NCBI GenBank assembly: GCA_023489205.1
Contig: JAMDDF010000024.1
Span: 1 to 7,251 of the forward strand
DNA from: Actinomycetota bacterium
Lineage (GTDB): Bacteria > Actinomycetota > Acidimicrobiia > Acidimicrobiales > Palsa-688
Length of the DNA: 7,251 nt
Reading direction: 5' to 3'
Below are positions 1 to 3,625 of this stretch, piece by piece (within the stretch, counting starts at the first letter, position 1; the number at the start of each line of letters is the position of its first letter). Both the position numbers and the translations under genes were made by a program. The notes under the pieces were generated by a model. It ran no database searches. It saw only the letters and a program-made list of their open reading frames with translations, and was not told the DNA's origin.

Positions 1-404
1 TCCTGCCCGCCTGCACGCTCCTGGTCACCGCCATTGGCGGCTGGATCCTCACTATGAGGAACACCGTGATAACGGTGCTCGCCGAGGACTACGTGCGGAT
101 GGCCCGAGCCAAGGGCCTACGGCCGTGGACCGTGATGTGGGGCTATGCCGGCCGCAACGCGATCCTTCCCAACCTGACTGGCTTTGCCATGTCCCTCGGG
201 TTCGTCGTAAGCGGGGCCATCCTGGTCGAGTACGTCTTCAATTACCCGGGAGTGGGCTGGATGCTGCTCCAATCCGTCGAGAACGAGGACTACGGCCTCA
301 TGCAGGCACTCTTCTTGTTGATCACCGTGGCCGTCCTGCTGGCCATACTCATTTCCGACGTCCTCACGGCCCTCCTCGACCCCCGTACCCGCGAGCTGCG
401 CTGA
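1..404 (+). CDS. DppB/OppB-type ABC transporter permease, C-terminal part (5' end outside window)
   Basis: This is the C-terminal ~134 residues of an inner-membrane permease of the peptide/nickel/oligosaccharide ABC importer class. It is open from the left edge, with the first whole codon at base 3, and ends in TGA at 402-404. The cytoplasmic EAA coupling loop is clear: EDYVRMARAKG followed by a basic stretch and NAILPN (about bases 87-173), where the ATPase docks. Two hydrophobic segments follow, one around GFAMSLGFVVSGAILVEYVF and one around FLLITVAVLLAILI. The ending LDPRTRELR is typical of DppB/OppB. The stop overlaps the next gene's start (TGATG), so the two are translationally coupled and probably form the two permease halves of one transporter. 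A substrate-binding protein gene is expected upstream but is not visible. The substrate cannot be read from this fragment; downstream genes favour a saccharide over a peptide. Confidence 0.94.
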   Translation, partial: LPACTLLVTAIGGWILTMRNTVITVLAEDYVRMARAKGLRPWTVMWGYAGRNAILPNLTGFAMSLGFVVSGAILVEYVFNYPGVGWMLLQSVENEDYGLMQALFLLITVAVLLAILISDVLTALLDPRTRELR

Positions 405-3400
405 TGACGACCCTCACCGCCACGACGGCCGCCGGTGGGGAGGCTCAGGCCCCGGGCACGGGCCAACGCCGGCGTGGGGTCAAGTTCTGGCGAGCCGTCA
501 GGCACAACCGCAAGGCAACCGCCGGCGCGGTGTTGCTCCTTTTCTTCCTCGTCTTGGCCGTGTTCCCAGGCCAGATCGCCCCTTACAGTGGGACCGCGGA
601 GATTTTCCAGCCAGGCCTCGGCCCGTCGGGTGCGCACTGGTTCGGTACGACCGCCTATGGCCAAGACGTCCTGTCGCAATTGATCTGGGGCACAAGGCAG
701 TCGTTGATAATTGCCTTCGCCGTGGGCGCCCTGGCGACCTGCATCGCGGTCATGATCGGCGTATCCGCCGCCTACTTGCGGGGCGCCTGGGACGGCGTGC
801 TGTCGCTCATAACAGACGTGTTGCTCGTCATACCCGTCTTCCCACTGATCATCGTGATCGCTGCCTACCTGAAAAGCGCCGGCACGCTCATGATGATCAT
901 CGTCTTGGGCGCCCTTGGCTGGTCCTACGGCGCTCGCCAGCTGCGCGCTCAGGCGCTATCGCTGCGCGACCGCGACTTCCTCGAGGCCGCTCGCGTCCGG
1001 GGCGAGCGCCGGGGCTACACGATCGTCGTGGAAGTCCTGCCCACGATGACCTCGCTCATCGTCGCCAGTTTCCTCGGTACGGCCGTGTACGCAGTCCTGA
1101 CAGCGGCCGGCCTGCAGTTCGTGGGATTGGGCAACCCCAACATGCAGAGCTGGGGCACGATGCTCTATTGGGCTGAAAACAACGAAGCCCTGGGCGCCGG
1201 CATGCCCCTGTGGGCCCTCACGCCCGGTGTGTGCGTAGCCTTGCTTGGTGCGGCGCTCGCGCTCTTGAACTACGCCTTCGACGAGATCTCCAACCCTGCG
1301 CTTCGCCCAGTCCGTGCCCGGGCCAAAAGAGCACAGCGCCTTGCACCGACCTCGCAGAGCCCAAACGACGGCGGTGACGACCAAGAGGTCAGGTCCGAAA
1401 CGGGAACTGCCTTGCCGCCCCAAGCCACGCCCGGCCCGGACGCTCCTCCTGGCCGGCCGCTGCTTTCCGTCCGCCAGCTCTCGGTCGGGTACGCCACGGG
1501 CTCTGGCTTCGTTCGGGCGGTAGATGGGGTGGACCTTGACTTGGCGCCAGGAGAGTTCCTCGCCATCGTAGGTGAGAGCGGCTGTGGCAAATCCACGCTC
1601 CTTTTCGCCCTGGCCCGCCTGCTCAACCCGCCAGCGACGATCACCGGGGGGACCATCGACTTCAAGGGCCACAACATGGTAGACATAACCGAAAAGCGGC
1701 TCCGTTACGTCCGTTGGCAGGAGTACTCGGTCGTGATGCAAAGCGCCATGAACGCCCTCAACCCGGTCATGACCGTGGCCCAGCAGATGGCCGACGTCTG
1801 CCGGGCGCACACAGAGATGACGAGCGCCGAGATCGAACGGCGTTCCCGTGAAGTCTTGCGGCTTGTTTCCATCGACCCAGTCCATTTGAACAGCTACCCC
1901 CACCAGCTCTCGGGTGGGATGCGCCAGCGAGCCATGATCGCAATGGCGCTGCTTTTCACGCCTGACCTCGTGATCATGGACGAGCCTACGTCGGCCTTGG
2001 ACGTGGTCGCTCAGCGCTCCCTCATGGCCCAGGTGAAGGAGCTCCAAAAAAGGCTCGGTTTCGCCGTCATCTTTGTCACCCATGACATGTCGCTCGTGAG
2101 CCATTTCGCAGACCGGCTGATGGTCATGTACGCGGGGCAGGTGGCAGAGATCGGGCCCACGGGCGACATTTTCTCCGACCCGCTCCATCCCTACGCGCGC
2201 GGCCTGATCGAAGCGTTCCCCTCGATACGAGGGCCCAAGGTCCTCCTTTCGGGGATACCTGGCTACCCACCCGACCTCGTCAACCCGCCCACGGGATGCC
2301 GCTTCCACCCACGCTGCCCGTGGGCTGTGCCCGAGTGTGCTCTTGAGCAACCGGCGGTCTACGTGCGGGGCTCGACAGCAGTTAGGTGCTCTATCTATAA
2401 GGACGAGGGCAAACAGGGGCTCCCAGACAAGGGGAACCTGGACAAGCCAACCTCGTCGACCACGGTCCAGGCGCTGGCGCCCTTCAGCGAAGCAAACGCG
2501 TCGCGTCCGGCAACTGCCGATGGCACCGGAGGGCACCTCGTCCAGACGAGCGCGCTCACGCGGCATTTCCGCATCGGTGGGCTCGTTAGAGGACGCACCC
2601 TTCACGCCGTAGAAGACCTGGAGCTGGTTATTGGTAGGAAGGAAATAGTCGCCCTTGTGGGCGAGAGCGGCAGCGGCAAGAGCACGGTAGCCCGCTTGCT
2701 GGCCAAGGTCTACCCGCCGACCACAGGCCAGATCCTCTTCGAAGGGGCTCGCGTGGCCCAGTTGAGGGGTAGAGCTTCGGCACTTGCCTACCGCAGCCAG
2801 GTCCCTATGGTCTTCCAGGACCCCTTCAGCTCGATGAACCCTGTCTTCCACGTAAGCCACGGGATCCTTCGGGCCATGAAGCTCCACCGCAGGGACCTGG
2901 ACAAGGCCGCCCGGCAAGCAGAGGCGGTGAGGGTCATGGAAGCGGTGGGATTGGTTCCCGCACAGGCGATGCTCGAAAAGTACCCATACGAGATGAGCGG
3001 CGGCCAGCGTCAGCGGGTCGGCTTCGCCCAAGCCCTCGCCCTGCGGCCTAAGCTCATCGTCGCCGACGAGCCCGTCTCGATGCTGGACGTGTCGATCCGA
3101 GTCGGCCTGCTCAACCTGATGGTCAAATTACGCGAGGAGGAGGGGGTCTCCTTCCTCTACATAACTCACGATATTGCAAGTGCTCGTTACGTCGCGGACC
3201 GGGTCCTCGTAATGTACGCGGGCCGCATCGTCGAACAGGGGCCAACTGAACAGGTCCTGGCGGATCCCAGGCACCCCTATACCAAGCTGCTGCTCCGTGC
3301 CGCGCCCGACCCTCGCGCCCCCCTCGACCTGTCCGAGGCGGCTGACGCGGGCGAGCCCCCCAAGGTAGTTGACCCGAAGCCGGGCTGCGCGTTCGCACCT

Positions 3401-3625
3401 CGCTGCCCAGTGGCCATCGAGCAATGCCGTCGCATCACACCGGTCCTCGGCGAAGTAGCCCCGCTGCAGTTGGCAGCGTGCCACGTAGCTCAAAGGGAAT
3501 CGGCTTCTCTTGCCCGCAAAACAGCGCCAGCCGGACAGCCACATCAGCCGCCGTCGGGGTCGCCGGCCTCGGTCACCTCGGGCGAGAGCGGCGGCAGCAC
3601 ACCGCCGCCAGCCGCGCTGAAGTGA
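404..3625 (+). CDS. Triple-fusion ABC importer subunit: DppC-type permease + DppD-type ATPase + DppF-type ATPase
   Basis: One uninterrupted frame encodes 1073 residues that combine three normally separate or at most pairwise-fused subunits. Residues 1-~302 are an OppC/DppC permease: basic N-terminus, first membrane helix ~39-54, HWFGT...GQDVLS block (~78-91), further helices, and an EAA loop at 194-213 (EAARVRG...LP). A Pro/Asp/Glu-rich linker spans ~303-351. ATPase 1 has Walker A GESGCGKST (390-398), Q-loop Q446, signature LSGGMRQR (502-509), Walker B/catalytic Glu MDEP (D526, E527) and H-loop H560. A four-cysteine tail follows (C632, C638, C645, C662). A second linker spans ~666-710. ATPase 2 has Walker A GESGSGKST (753-761), signature MSGGQRQR (864-871), ADEP (D888, E889), H922 and another four-cysteine tail (C995, C1001, C1008, C1026). 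Residues ~1030-1073 form a Pro/Ser/Gly-rich tail. All catalytic motifs are intact in both ATPases. The ATG at 404 overlaps the previous stop and gives the expected permease N-terminus. Transport substrate is inferred to be a glycoside or oligosaccharide from the neighbours. Confidence 0.93.
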   Translation: MTTLTATTAAGGEAQAPGTGQRRRGVKFWRAVRHNRKATAGAVLLLFFLVLAVFPGQIAPYSGTAEIFQPGLGPSGAHWFGTTAYGQDVLSQLIWGTRQSLIIAFAVGALATCIAVMIGVSAAYLRGAWDGVLSLITDVLLVIPVFPLIIVIAAYLKSAGTLMMIIVLGALGWSYGARQLRAQALSLRDRDFLEAARVRGERRGYTIVVEVLPTMTSLIVASFLGTAVYAVLTAAGLQFVGLGNPNMQSWGTMLYWAENNEALGAGMPLWALTPGVCVALLGAALALLNYAFDEISNPALRPVRARAKRAQRLAPTSQSPNDGGDDQEVRSETGTALPPQATPGPDAPPGRPLLSVRQLSVGYATGSGFVRAVDGVDLDLAPGEFLAIVGESGCGKSTLLFALARLLNPPATITGGTIDFKGHNMVDITEKRLRYVRWQEYSVVMQSAMNALNPVMTVAQQMADVCRAHTEMTSAEIERRSREVLRLVSIDPVHLNSYPHQLSGGMRQRAMIAMALLFTPDLVIMDEPTSALDVVAQRSLMAQVKELQKRLGFAVIFVTHDMSLVSHFADRLMVMYAGQVAEIGPTGDIFSDPLHPYARGLIEAFPSIRGPKVLLSGIPGYPPDLVNPPTGCRFHPRCPWAVPECALEQPAVYVRGSTAVRCSIYKDEGKQGLPDKGNLDKPTSSTTVQALAPFSEANASRPATADGTGGHLVQTSALTRHFRIGGLVRGRTLHAVEDLELVIGRKEIVALVGESGSGKSTVARLLAKVYPPTTGQILFEGARVAQLRGRASALAYRSQVPMVFQDPFSSMNPVFHVSHGILRAMKLHRRDLDKAARQAEAVRVMEAVGLVPAQAMLEKYPYEMSGGQRQRVGFAQALALRPKLIVADEPVSMLDVSIRVGLLNLMVKLREEEGVSFLYITHDIASARYVADRVLVMYAGRIVEQGPTEQVLADPRHPYTKLLLRAAPDPRAPLDLSEAADAGEPPKVVDPKPGCAFAPRCPVAIEQCRRITPVLGEVAPLQLAACHVAQRESASLARKTAPAGQPHQPPSGSPASVTSGESGGSTPPPAALK

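What the first reader, a model, noticed from the sequence alone, without database searches (positions are those of the whole stretch)
404..3625. Triple fusion: permease + two ATPases of a Dpp/Opp-class ABC importer in one polypeptide
Seen: a single stop-free frame from 404 to 3625 carries a complete DppC-type permease with its EAA loop and two complete ATPase domains, each with its own Walker A, signature, Walker B, H-loop and four-Cys tail. Known: tandem DppD-DppF ATPase fusions (for example GsiA, YejF) and single permease-ATPase fusions occur. A permease-ATPase-ATPase chain is, to my knowledge, rare. Inference: paired with the upstream DppB, the membrane core needs only two chains, fixing stoichiometry and tying both ATPases to one permease half. 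The layout is topologically plausible because DppC-type permeases end in the cytoplasm.
Basis: partly seen in the sequence, partly recalled or inferred. Interest (0 to 1): 0.72.

Follow-up and report, generated by a model that had tools for sequence, protein, structure and literature searches.

The report
Three-part fused sugar-importer protein
An uncultured bacterium, probably an actinobacterium, makes one membrane-channel half and both ATP motors of a nutrient importer as a single protein; the fusion is real and striking to look at, but the same arrangement has arisen several times in related bacteria, and the importer is of a well-known type that here probably takes up oligosaccharides rather than peptides.

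Summary
404-3625 is one open frame (1073 aa): DppC-type permease, 45-aa linker, DppD/OppD-type ATPase, 42-aa linker, DppF-type ATPase, both ATPases with full motifs and a [4Fe-4S]-type four-Cys tail. It is not an assembly error: a same-genus genome keeps the frame at 85% identity, and one search lists eleven triple-fusion clusters, ten of them beyond that genome's copy. A 113-row AlphaFold model (pLDDT 84.8, pTM 0.82) shows three folded parts with disordered linkers; its ATPase pair fits M. tuberculosis OppD.

"Rare" is not supported: 133 of 359 clusters listed in three searches seeded with triples are permease-ATPase-ATPase, from at least four origins by parsimony.

Two corrections. (1) In E. 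coli, DppC couples to DppF and DppB to DppD (PMC12136057), so by homology the ATPase joined to this permease drives the other permease; its own motor is at the far end. (2) The operon (two ROK proteins, an SBP near a chitin-oligosaccharide binder, PfkB kinase, GH4) points to oligosaccharide import.

Verdict: genuine, recurrent fusion variant of a known importer class; my paper searches listed no description of it.

The parts
3..404 (+). C-terminal part of the DppB-type permease gene (complete gene of 327 aa lies at L009:13574-14557, minus strand of that locus); TGA 402-404 overlaps the ATG of the fusion
   Evidence: best solved relative E. coli DppB 8z1v_A
404..3625 (+). Permease-ATPase-ATPase fusion gene (C-D-F), 1073 aa
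   Evidence: frame kept in G002 at 85% identity
485..1321 (+). DppC/OppC-type permease domain, residues 28-306 (OppC_N 28-62, BPD_transp_1 115-299)
   Evidence: boundaries as used for the HMM
965..1045 (+). EAA-loop/coupling-helix region, residues about 188-214
   Evidence: Alignment to E. coli DppC, whose coupling helix is named TAS in PMC12136057
1322..1456 (+). Linker 1, residues 307-351, low complexity; one in-frame TTG, none preceded by an SD-like motif
   Evidence: AF2 pLDDT under 50 at 321-334
1457..2407 (+). First ATPase (DppD/OppD-type) with oligo_HPY tail, residues 352-668; Walker A 1571-1597, signature 1907-1927, H-loop His 2081-2083, four-Cys tail 2297-2389
2408..2533 (+). Linker 2, residues 669-710, low complexity; no in-frame ATG, GTG or TTG
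   Evidence: AF2 pLDDT under 50 at 684-707
2534..3493 (+). Second ATPase (DppF-type) with oligo_HPY tail, residues 711-1030; Walker A 2660-2686, signature 2993-3013, H-loop His 3167-3169, four-Cys tail 3386-3481
3494..3622 (+). Variable C-terminal tail, residues 1031-1073
   Evidence: AF2 pLDDT under 50 at 1050-1073
3622..4581 (+). PfkB-family sugar kinase; an in-frame GTG at 3622 overlaps the TGA of the fusion (start chosen by me; the searches used 3631-4578)
   Evidence: same place after the importer in L155, L145, L147, L149, L151
4636..6045 (+). Glycoside hydrolase family 4 gene, closest solved relatives 6-phospho-beta-glucosidases
   Evidence: 72-86% identity in L155, L145, L147, L149, L151

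Best explanation
The gene makes one genuine polypeptide that carries the DppC-type permease and both ATPases of an Opp/Dpp-class (type I, family-5 binding protein) ABC importer. With the separate DppB-type permease it forms a two-chain membrane core, fed by the operon's extracellular binding protein, that most likely imports an oligosaccharide or glycoside. Shown by sequence or model: the continuous frame, complete motifs, conservation in kin, three folded parts joined by disordered linkers, a predicted ATPase pair like that of OppD. Inferred: (a) the chain stays uncut; (b) as in E. coli DppBCDF the permease C couples to the distal ATPase F, while the adjacent ATPase D couples to DppB, the ~45-aa linkers giving the reach; (c) the imported sugar is phosphorylated by the ROK kinase, cleaved by GH4, and a product is phosphorylated by PfkB. 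The fusion arose from the conserved gene order C-D-F by loss of the two gene boundaries, and did so repeatedly.
For: Frame and domains. Kin with the same fusion: G002, P0001-P0008, P0053, P0054, P0110 (P0004 is identical to the G002 copy in the columns used). No in-frame start preceded by an SD-like motif in either linker of the window or of the G002 copy L155; in the split relatives L066 and L075 such a site with an ATG, and in L067 one with a GTG, stands at the permease/ATPase boundary (read by eye). Purifying selection on all three domains, omega 0.07-0.09. AF2 with 113 rows: pLDDT 84.8, pTM 0.82; stretches under 50 only at 1-20, 321-334, 684-707, 1050-1073; ATPase pair 351-973 fits M. tuberculosis OppD 8j5s_D over 597 residues at 2.7 A. 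Coupling pairs: PMC12136057. Sugar context: SBP matches 1zty 'chitin oligosaccharide binding protein' at 1.2e-64 and 4pfu 'mannoside ... sugar-binding protein' at 1.1e-43, against 1.1e-17 for DppA and 6.9e-17 for the best OppA; GH4 best matches are 6-phospho-beta-glucosidases; ROK kinase and ROK regulator; order SBP-DppB-C-D-F kept in fused and split relatives.
Against: No RNA or protein data. Covariation did not settle which ATPase the permease touches: the highest permease-ATPase pair was 209-815, at the C-F interface by homology, but the interface blocks of both ATPases were about equally enriched among the top 1% of scores (11 pairs against 8.4 expected for D, 10 against 8.1 for F). The AF2 model lacks DppB and I could not read its coordinates. 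The substrate is deduced from neighbours and SBP similarity only: the top-ranked solved SBPs (6lzu, 5yqw and others, from 2.4e-67) are named only 'peptide ABC transporter, periplasmic peptide-binding protein' (that they are Vibrio chito-oligosaccharide binders is my recall). PfkB-GH4 follow the importer in only 5 of the 21 loci; they were not found in the flanks held of, for example, L077, L066, L120 and L150.
Confidence: 0.77

Rival explanations
1. The fusion is an artefact: a missed stop or frameshift in the assembly joined three separate genes.
For: Genome in 259 contigs, 89% complete; split relatives exist at 57-70% identity.
Against: G002 keeps the whole frame at 85% identity; eleven triple-fusion clusters among the 120 listed, from several sources; both frames stay open across diverged linkers.
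Confidence: 0.02
2. One mRNA, but two or three working proteins: the chain is cut in the linkers after translation, or internal starts also yield separate D and F.
For: Linkers are disordered and fast-evolving, as protease-sensitive linkers would be; a TTG lies in frame in linker 1 of the window and one in linker 2 of the G002 copy.
Against: No SD-preceded in-frame start in either linker of the window or L155; no conserved cleavage motif that I could see by eye in the linker columns of the 12-protein alignment.
Confidence: 0.15
3. It is a peptide (dipeptide/oligopeptide) importer, or a nickel/metallophore one, as family and automatic names say.
For: NCBIfam and public names are dipeptide/oligopeptide. 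NCBIfam cut-offs of PRK11308, NikD, NikE, CntD and CntF are passed, but these whole-protein scores add up both ATPases. The top-ranked solved SBPs carry a generic peptide name.
Against: SBP, GH4, PfkB and two ROK proteins in the operon; conserved order in relatives; an independently fused triple in G004 lies 1.6 kb from a GH130 mannooligosaccharide phosphorylase gene, next to a LacI regulator. Curated cut-offs for DppF, OppD, OppF, GsiA and YejF are not reached.
Confidence: 0.12
4. The chain is wired in cis: permease C docks on the adjacent first ATPase, so that the partner logic differs from E. coli DppBCDF.
For: Covalent neighbourhood; interface columns of the first ATPase are as enriched in covariation as those of the second.
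Against: The two ATPases stay clearly D-type and F-type, and E. coli pairs are B-D and C-F; the single top covarying pair is with F.
Confidence: 0.2

Closest known systems
Escherichia coli DppBCDF (8z1v; PMC12136057)
   Same: Same four modules, same C/D/F identity by sequence and fold; near-identical four-Cys spacing (E. coli DppD 284/290/297/315, DppF 293/299/306/323; window 632/638/645/662 and 995/1001/1008/1026)
   Different: Four separate chains in E. coli; C, D and F are one chain here; probable sugar instead of dipeptide
Mycobacterium tuberculosis OppABCD and DppABCD (8j5q-8j5t, 8wd9-8xfc)
   Same: Two ATPases in one chain; the ATPase pair superposes (8j5s_D 597 residues, 2.7 A)
   Different: Permease C is a separate chain there (8j5q_C); according to PMC12136057 Mtb OppD has one [4Fe-4S] domain and DppD none, here there are two four-Cys tails
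Permease-ATPase double fusions named 'dipeptide/oligopeptide/nickel ABC transporter permease/ATP-binding protein' (for example P0136, P0141)
   Same: C joined to D in one chain; a group of such doubles (P0009, L068, L070 and others) is sister to the window's group
   Different: No second ATPase in the chain; in the loci L068-L072 F is a separate gene
Other permease-ATPase-ATPase proteins in public data (P0121-P0125, P0127, P0128; the P0240-P0359 group; G040 locus L165)
   Same: Same order C-D-F; linker medians 45 and 49 aa over 133 proteins
   Different: Apparently separate origins: one clade for 19 triples is rejected

Membership tests
Opp/Dpp-class ABC importer (peptide/nickel/oligosaccharide, family-5 SBP) | BPD_transp_1 permease with OppC_N | tested here: met
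   PF00528 69.4 bits (cut-off 26.4), PF12911 28.8 (23.9)
Opp/Dpp-class ABC importer (peptide/nickel/oligosaccharide, family-5 SBP) | Two ABC_tran ATPases each followed by oligo_HPY | tested here: met
   PF00005 and PF08352, two stretches each, above cut-off
Opp/Dpp-class ABC importer (peptide/nickel/oligosaccharide, family-5 SBP) | Partner permease DppB and SBP_bac_5 gene in the operon | tested here: met
   L009:13577-14557 PF00528 146.9 bits; L009:14597-16318 PF00496 241.4 bits
Opp/Dpp-class ABC importer (peptide/nickel/oligosaccharide, family-5 SBP) | Four-Cys [4Fe-4S] motif at the ATPase C-termini | tested here: met
   Positions, conservation; spacing compared with PMC12136057; the cluster itself is not testable here
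Peptide importer (DppABCDF/OppABCDF orthologue) | Curated NCBIfam cut-offs | tested here: not met
   DppF_dipep 451 against 660, OppD PRK09473 487 against 575, OppF PRK15079 482 against 540; only the broader PRK11308 subfamily is passed (538 against 408), and the scores add up both ATPases
GsiA/YejF tandem-ATPase proteins | Curated NCBIfam cut-offs | tested here: not met
   GsiA 420 against 1077, YejF 401 against 834
Nickel (NikDE) or staphylopine (CntDF) importer | Curated NCBIfam cut-offs | tested here: inconclusive
   NikD 392 against 318.7, NikE 387 against 332.6, CntF 391 against 385, CntD 390 against 380 are passed, but each whole-protein score sums two ATPases; the SBP does not reach the NikA cut-off (118 against 393)
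Oligosaccharide importer of the Opp class | SBP binds an oligosaccharide | not testable with these tools
   Only indirect: (1zty, 4pfu); operon genes
Full-length ABC exporter (permease-ATPase in one chain) | Exporter-type transmembrane domain | tested here: not met
   Permease is BPD_transp_1; the 5 solved permease relatives at E up to 1e-8 are DppC/OppC-type proteins

The most novel reading that the evidence does not exclude
A recurrent, crosswise-wired importer core: permease C is covalently tied to the ATPase that drives the other permease (B), while its own motor F hangs at the far end of the same chain, and this layout has been reached at least four times by different routes (C-D first or D-F first), which would mean selection for obligate one-to-one assembly of hetero-subunits and would make the otherwise loose C/D/F assembly a single genetic and biochemical unit.
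Probability: 0.5. Interest if true: 0.42.

Novelty: new variant of a known kind. Interest (0 to 1): 0.3.

Why it matters
It gives a natural, covalently locked version of the C-D-F part of Opp/Dpp importers, useful for testing which ATPase drives which permease and whether both are needed, because stoichiometry and pairing are fixed and each ATPase can be disabled in cis. It also suggests that operon gene order can be turned into one protein repeatedly, and that automatic names ('dipeptide ABC transporter ATP-binding protein') hide both the architecture and the probable sugar substrate.

Tried and rejected
Assembly artefact: rejected by independent assemblies. Rare one-off: rejected. Single origin: the best tree with 19 triple rows held together is 1525 log units worse, p-AU 3.8e-44 (group named before this tree but; quick tree, LG+G4; G040 left out). 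The AU test rejects one clade; 'at least four origins' rests on parsimony over the trees (10 changes, 5, gains and losses not told apart).

First AF2 job with the 12-row alignment was poor (pLDDT 46, pTM 0.38); only the 113-row job is used. The 113 rows are the window, 87 P rows picked as triples (one of them, P0296, is a double) and 25 doubles. The VIA rows cover 351-976 mainly; the permease is barely tested there.

Covariation (268 rows, effective number 116): inconclusive on C-D against C-F. Two of my regular expressions were too strict: THD/SHD was found in the second ATPase of only 16 of 133 triples and a four-Cys pattern in the first ATPase of only 51; the columns of alignment A2 show both His and all eight Cys kept in nearly all rows that have letters there (where a looser spacing pattern again failed in 63 of the 114 triples).

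Class-wide search with the window protein (E up to 1e-140): 26 of 395 genomes matched, of which four rows span permease to second ATPase without a stop (G000, G004, G103, G087). With P0315 (E up to 1e-170): 77 of 395 matched; besides G087 and G103 I checked G040 and it is a triple; other long frames in that list were not examined one by one. Phylum search with P0315 at E up to 1e-200: 3 of 296, none a triple. These strict thresholds miss others. Among the 80 named loci: 2 triples, 12 C|DF, 8 CD|F, 2 CD where the contig ends before F could be seen, the other 56 separate or incomplete.

Literature: of ten searches five aimed at the fusion (14, 31, 46, 65, 83; one search found no paper); none listed a paper whose title or abstract start describes a permease-ATPase-ATPase Opp/Dpp chain. 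I read passages and section 6 of PMC12136057; of all other papers I saw the listing only. Subscription papers are not covered.

Rows dropped: one search left out seven duplicate loci, rows lacking a domain or with a domain under 200 residues, and thinned the P rows (204 rows kept, some still identical); one search used 61 of those 204; one search used 130 rows (28 of 109 double-fusion P rows). For P rows 'CD|F' means only that the protein holds C and D; a separate F gene was not seen.
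Full report
What is there. The frame 404-3625 is open and encodes 1073 residues; its ATG overlaps the stop of the upstream DppB-type permease gene. Pfam finds OppC_N, BPD_transp_1, and ABC_tran plus oligo_HPY twice. By sequence the first ATPase is DppD/OppD-type and the second DppF-type among single-ATPase chains; by fold the best matches are 4fwi (DppD-type) and 8z21_C (OppD) for the first and 8z1w_D (DppF) for the second. 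Motifs are complete in both. The two four-Cys sets have the spacing, within one residue, of the [4Fe-4S] ligands that PMC12136057 reports for E. coli DppD and DppF.

It is not an artefact. The protein search with the permease part listed 11 triple fusions of 1041-1095 aa among 120 clusters. All eleven, the window, the G002 copy L155 and L077 form one tree group with the C|DF loci L066, L067 and L075 and with L080, whose contig ends early (18 rows, support 100). Between window and G002 copy, omega is 0.07-0.09 in the three domains; linkers 1 and 2 keep 45% and 36% amino-acid identity with 7 and 3 gap columns, and the frame stays open through both. Neither linker has an in-frame start preceded by an SD-like motif in the window or G002 copy (the window has one bare TTG in linker 1, the G002 copy one in linker 2).

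Architecture in relatives. Every arrangement exists around it: C|D|F, CD|F, C|DF and CDF. L066 and L075 are split between C and D, with AAAGGAG or AGAGGAG a few bases before an ATG that lies inside the last codons of C, so that split is a real gene boundary (read by eye). The window's group holds 14 triple rows, counting the window and two identical rows (P0004 and L155), and three C|DF loci; its sister group is CD|F. So within this group the C-D junction was gained twice or lost at least once; I cannot say which. Searches seeded with two other triples listed 8 of 119 new clusters and 114 of 120 as triples; P0235 among the eight is a partial protein of 805 aa. Altogether 133 of 359 clusters are C+D+F with median linkers of 45 and 49 aa. 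These searches start from triples and are cut to the best 120, so the share is no prevalence. Triples fall in separate parts of the tree: the window group, the L152/P0121-P0128 group, the L153/P0240 group and G040. Holding 19 triples (G040 left out) together is rejected, p-AU 3.8e-44. Near the L153 group stand C|DF loci, near the L152 group CD doubles and C|DF loci, near the window group CD|F, which suggests different routes to the same end; this is a reading of the trees, not a test.

Structure. AlphaFold2 on 113 rows gives pLDDT 84.8 and pTM 0.82; the stretches under 50 are the N-tail 1-20, 321-334, 684-707 and the C-tail 1050-1073. Residues 351-973 of the model fit the two-ATPase chain of M. 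tuberculosis OppD in its pre-catalytic state over 597 residues at 2.7 A. So the fused ATPases are predicted to pair as in a working importer. The model has no DppB.

Wiring. PMC12136057 (section 6 in full, passages elsewhere) states that in E. coli DppB and DppC specifically interact with DppD and DppF, respectively. If that holds here, the ATPase next to the permease drives the other permease, and the permease's own motor is the last domain. The covariation test was not decisive: the top pair of all permease-ATPase pairs examined was 209-815, next to positions that align with the E. coli C-F contact residues N210/N214 and N113 (my mapping; the contacts are named), but enrichment of the coupling-helix block was alike for both ATPases.

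What it transports. Upstream lie the complete DppB, a family-5 SBP, a ROK kinase and a divergent ROK regulator; downstream a PfkB kinase and a GH4 enzyme. Among solved structures the SBP matches 1zty, named chitin oligosaccharide binding protein, at 1.2e-64 and a mannoside binder (4pfu) at 1.1e-43, far ahead of DppA (1.1e-17) and OppA (6.9e-17); the few entries ranked above 1zty bear a generic transporter name. GH4 is closest to 6-phospho-beta-glucosidases. In the 21 loci compared the order SBP-DppB-C-D-F is kept wherever the held stretch reaches, except that no SBP was seen in L146 (weak SBP matches in L152-L154); a ROK kinase match precedes it in L155, L066, L075, L120, L121 and in part L149, and PfkB-GH4 follow it in L155, L145, L147, L149 and L151, but were not found in the flanks held of the others (L068, L070 and L072 hold a GH4 of about 31% identity elsewhere). 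An independently fused triple, G004:C25, lies near a GH130 mannooligosaccharide phosphorylase gene and a LacI regulator; the L153 triple has no sugar gene among the four non-SBP neighbours scanned. I therefore read the importer as one for an oligosaccharide or glycoside, with kinase and GH4 acting after import.

Verdict. A real and recurrent fusion variant of a well-known importer class, with no description in the papers that my searches listed. Its mechanism is most likely ordinary; the points of interest are the repeated origin and the crosswise covalent order.

Noticed in passing
window 3622-3625: A GTG in frame with the PfkB kinase overlaps the TGA of the fusion (GTGA), which would couple translation of the kinase to the importer.
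   Followed up: partly
window 5140-5151: The GH4 enzyme has CDTP where the aligned 6-phospho-beta-glucosidases 5c3m and 1s6y have CNVP, so its exact specificity may differ.
   Followed up: no
window 6104-6733 and 6758-7249, minus strand: Converging genes that look like recR and the end of dnaX (recognised by eye, no search run).
   Followed up: no
L010 (G000:C250:3159-6125): The same genome has a second Opp-class locus with a tandem D-F ATPase stretch (46% identity to P0315 without a stop) next to a permease match.
   Followed up: no
L165 / L036 (G040:C28): A further permease-ATPase-ATPase fusion in another family of the same order, apart from the other triples in the trees.
   Followed up: partly
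L152:9135-13199: An independently fused triple sits near a GH130 mannooligosaccharide phosphorylase gene and a LacI regulator.
   Followed up: partly
L081, L082, L101, L106, L107: Archaeal MAG records (Thermoplasmata, Nitrososphaerota or 'archaeon' by title) carry distant, unfused C|D|F relatives; transfer or misbinning not examined.
   Followed up: no
L105, L123, L147: Relatives whose first ATPase is split over two or more pieces, perhaps sequencing errors or decay; left as found.
   Followed up: no
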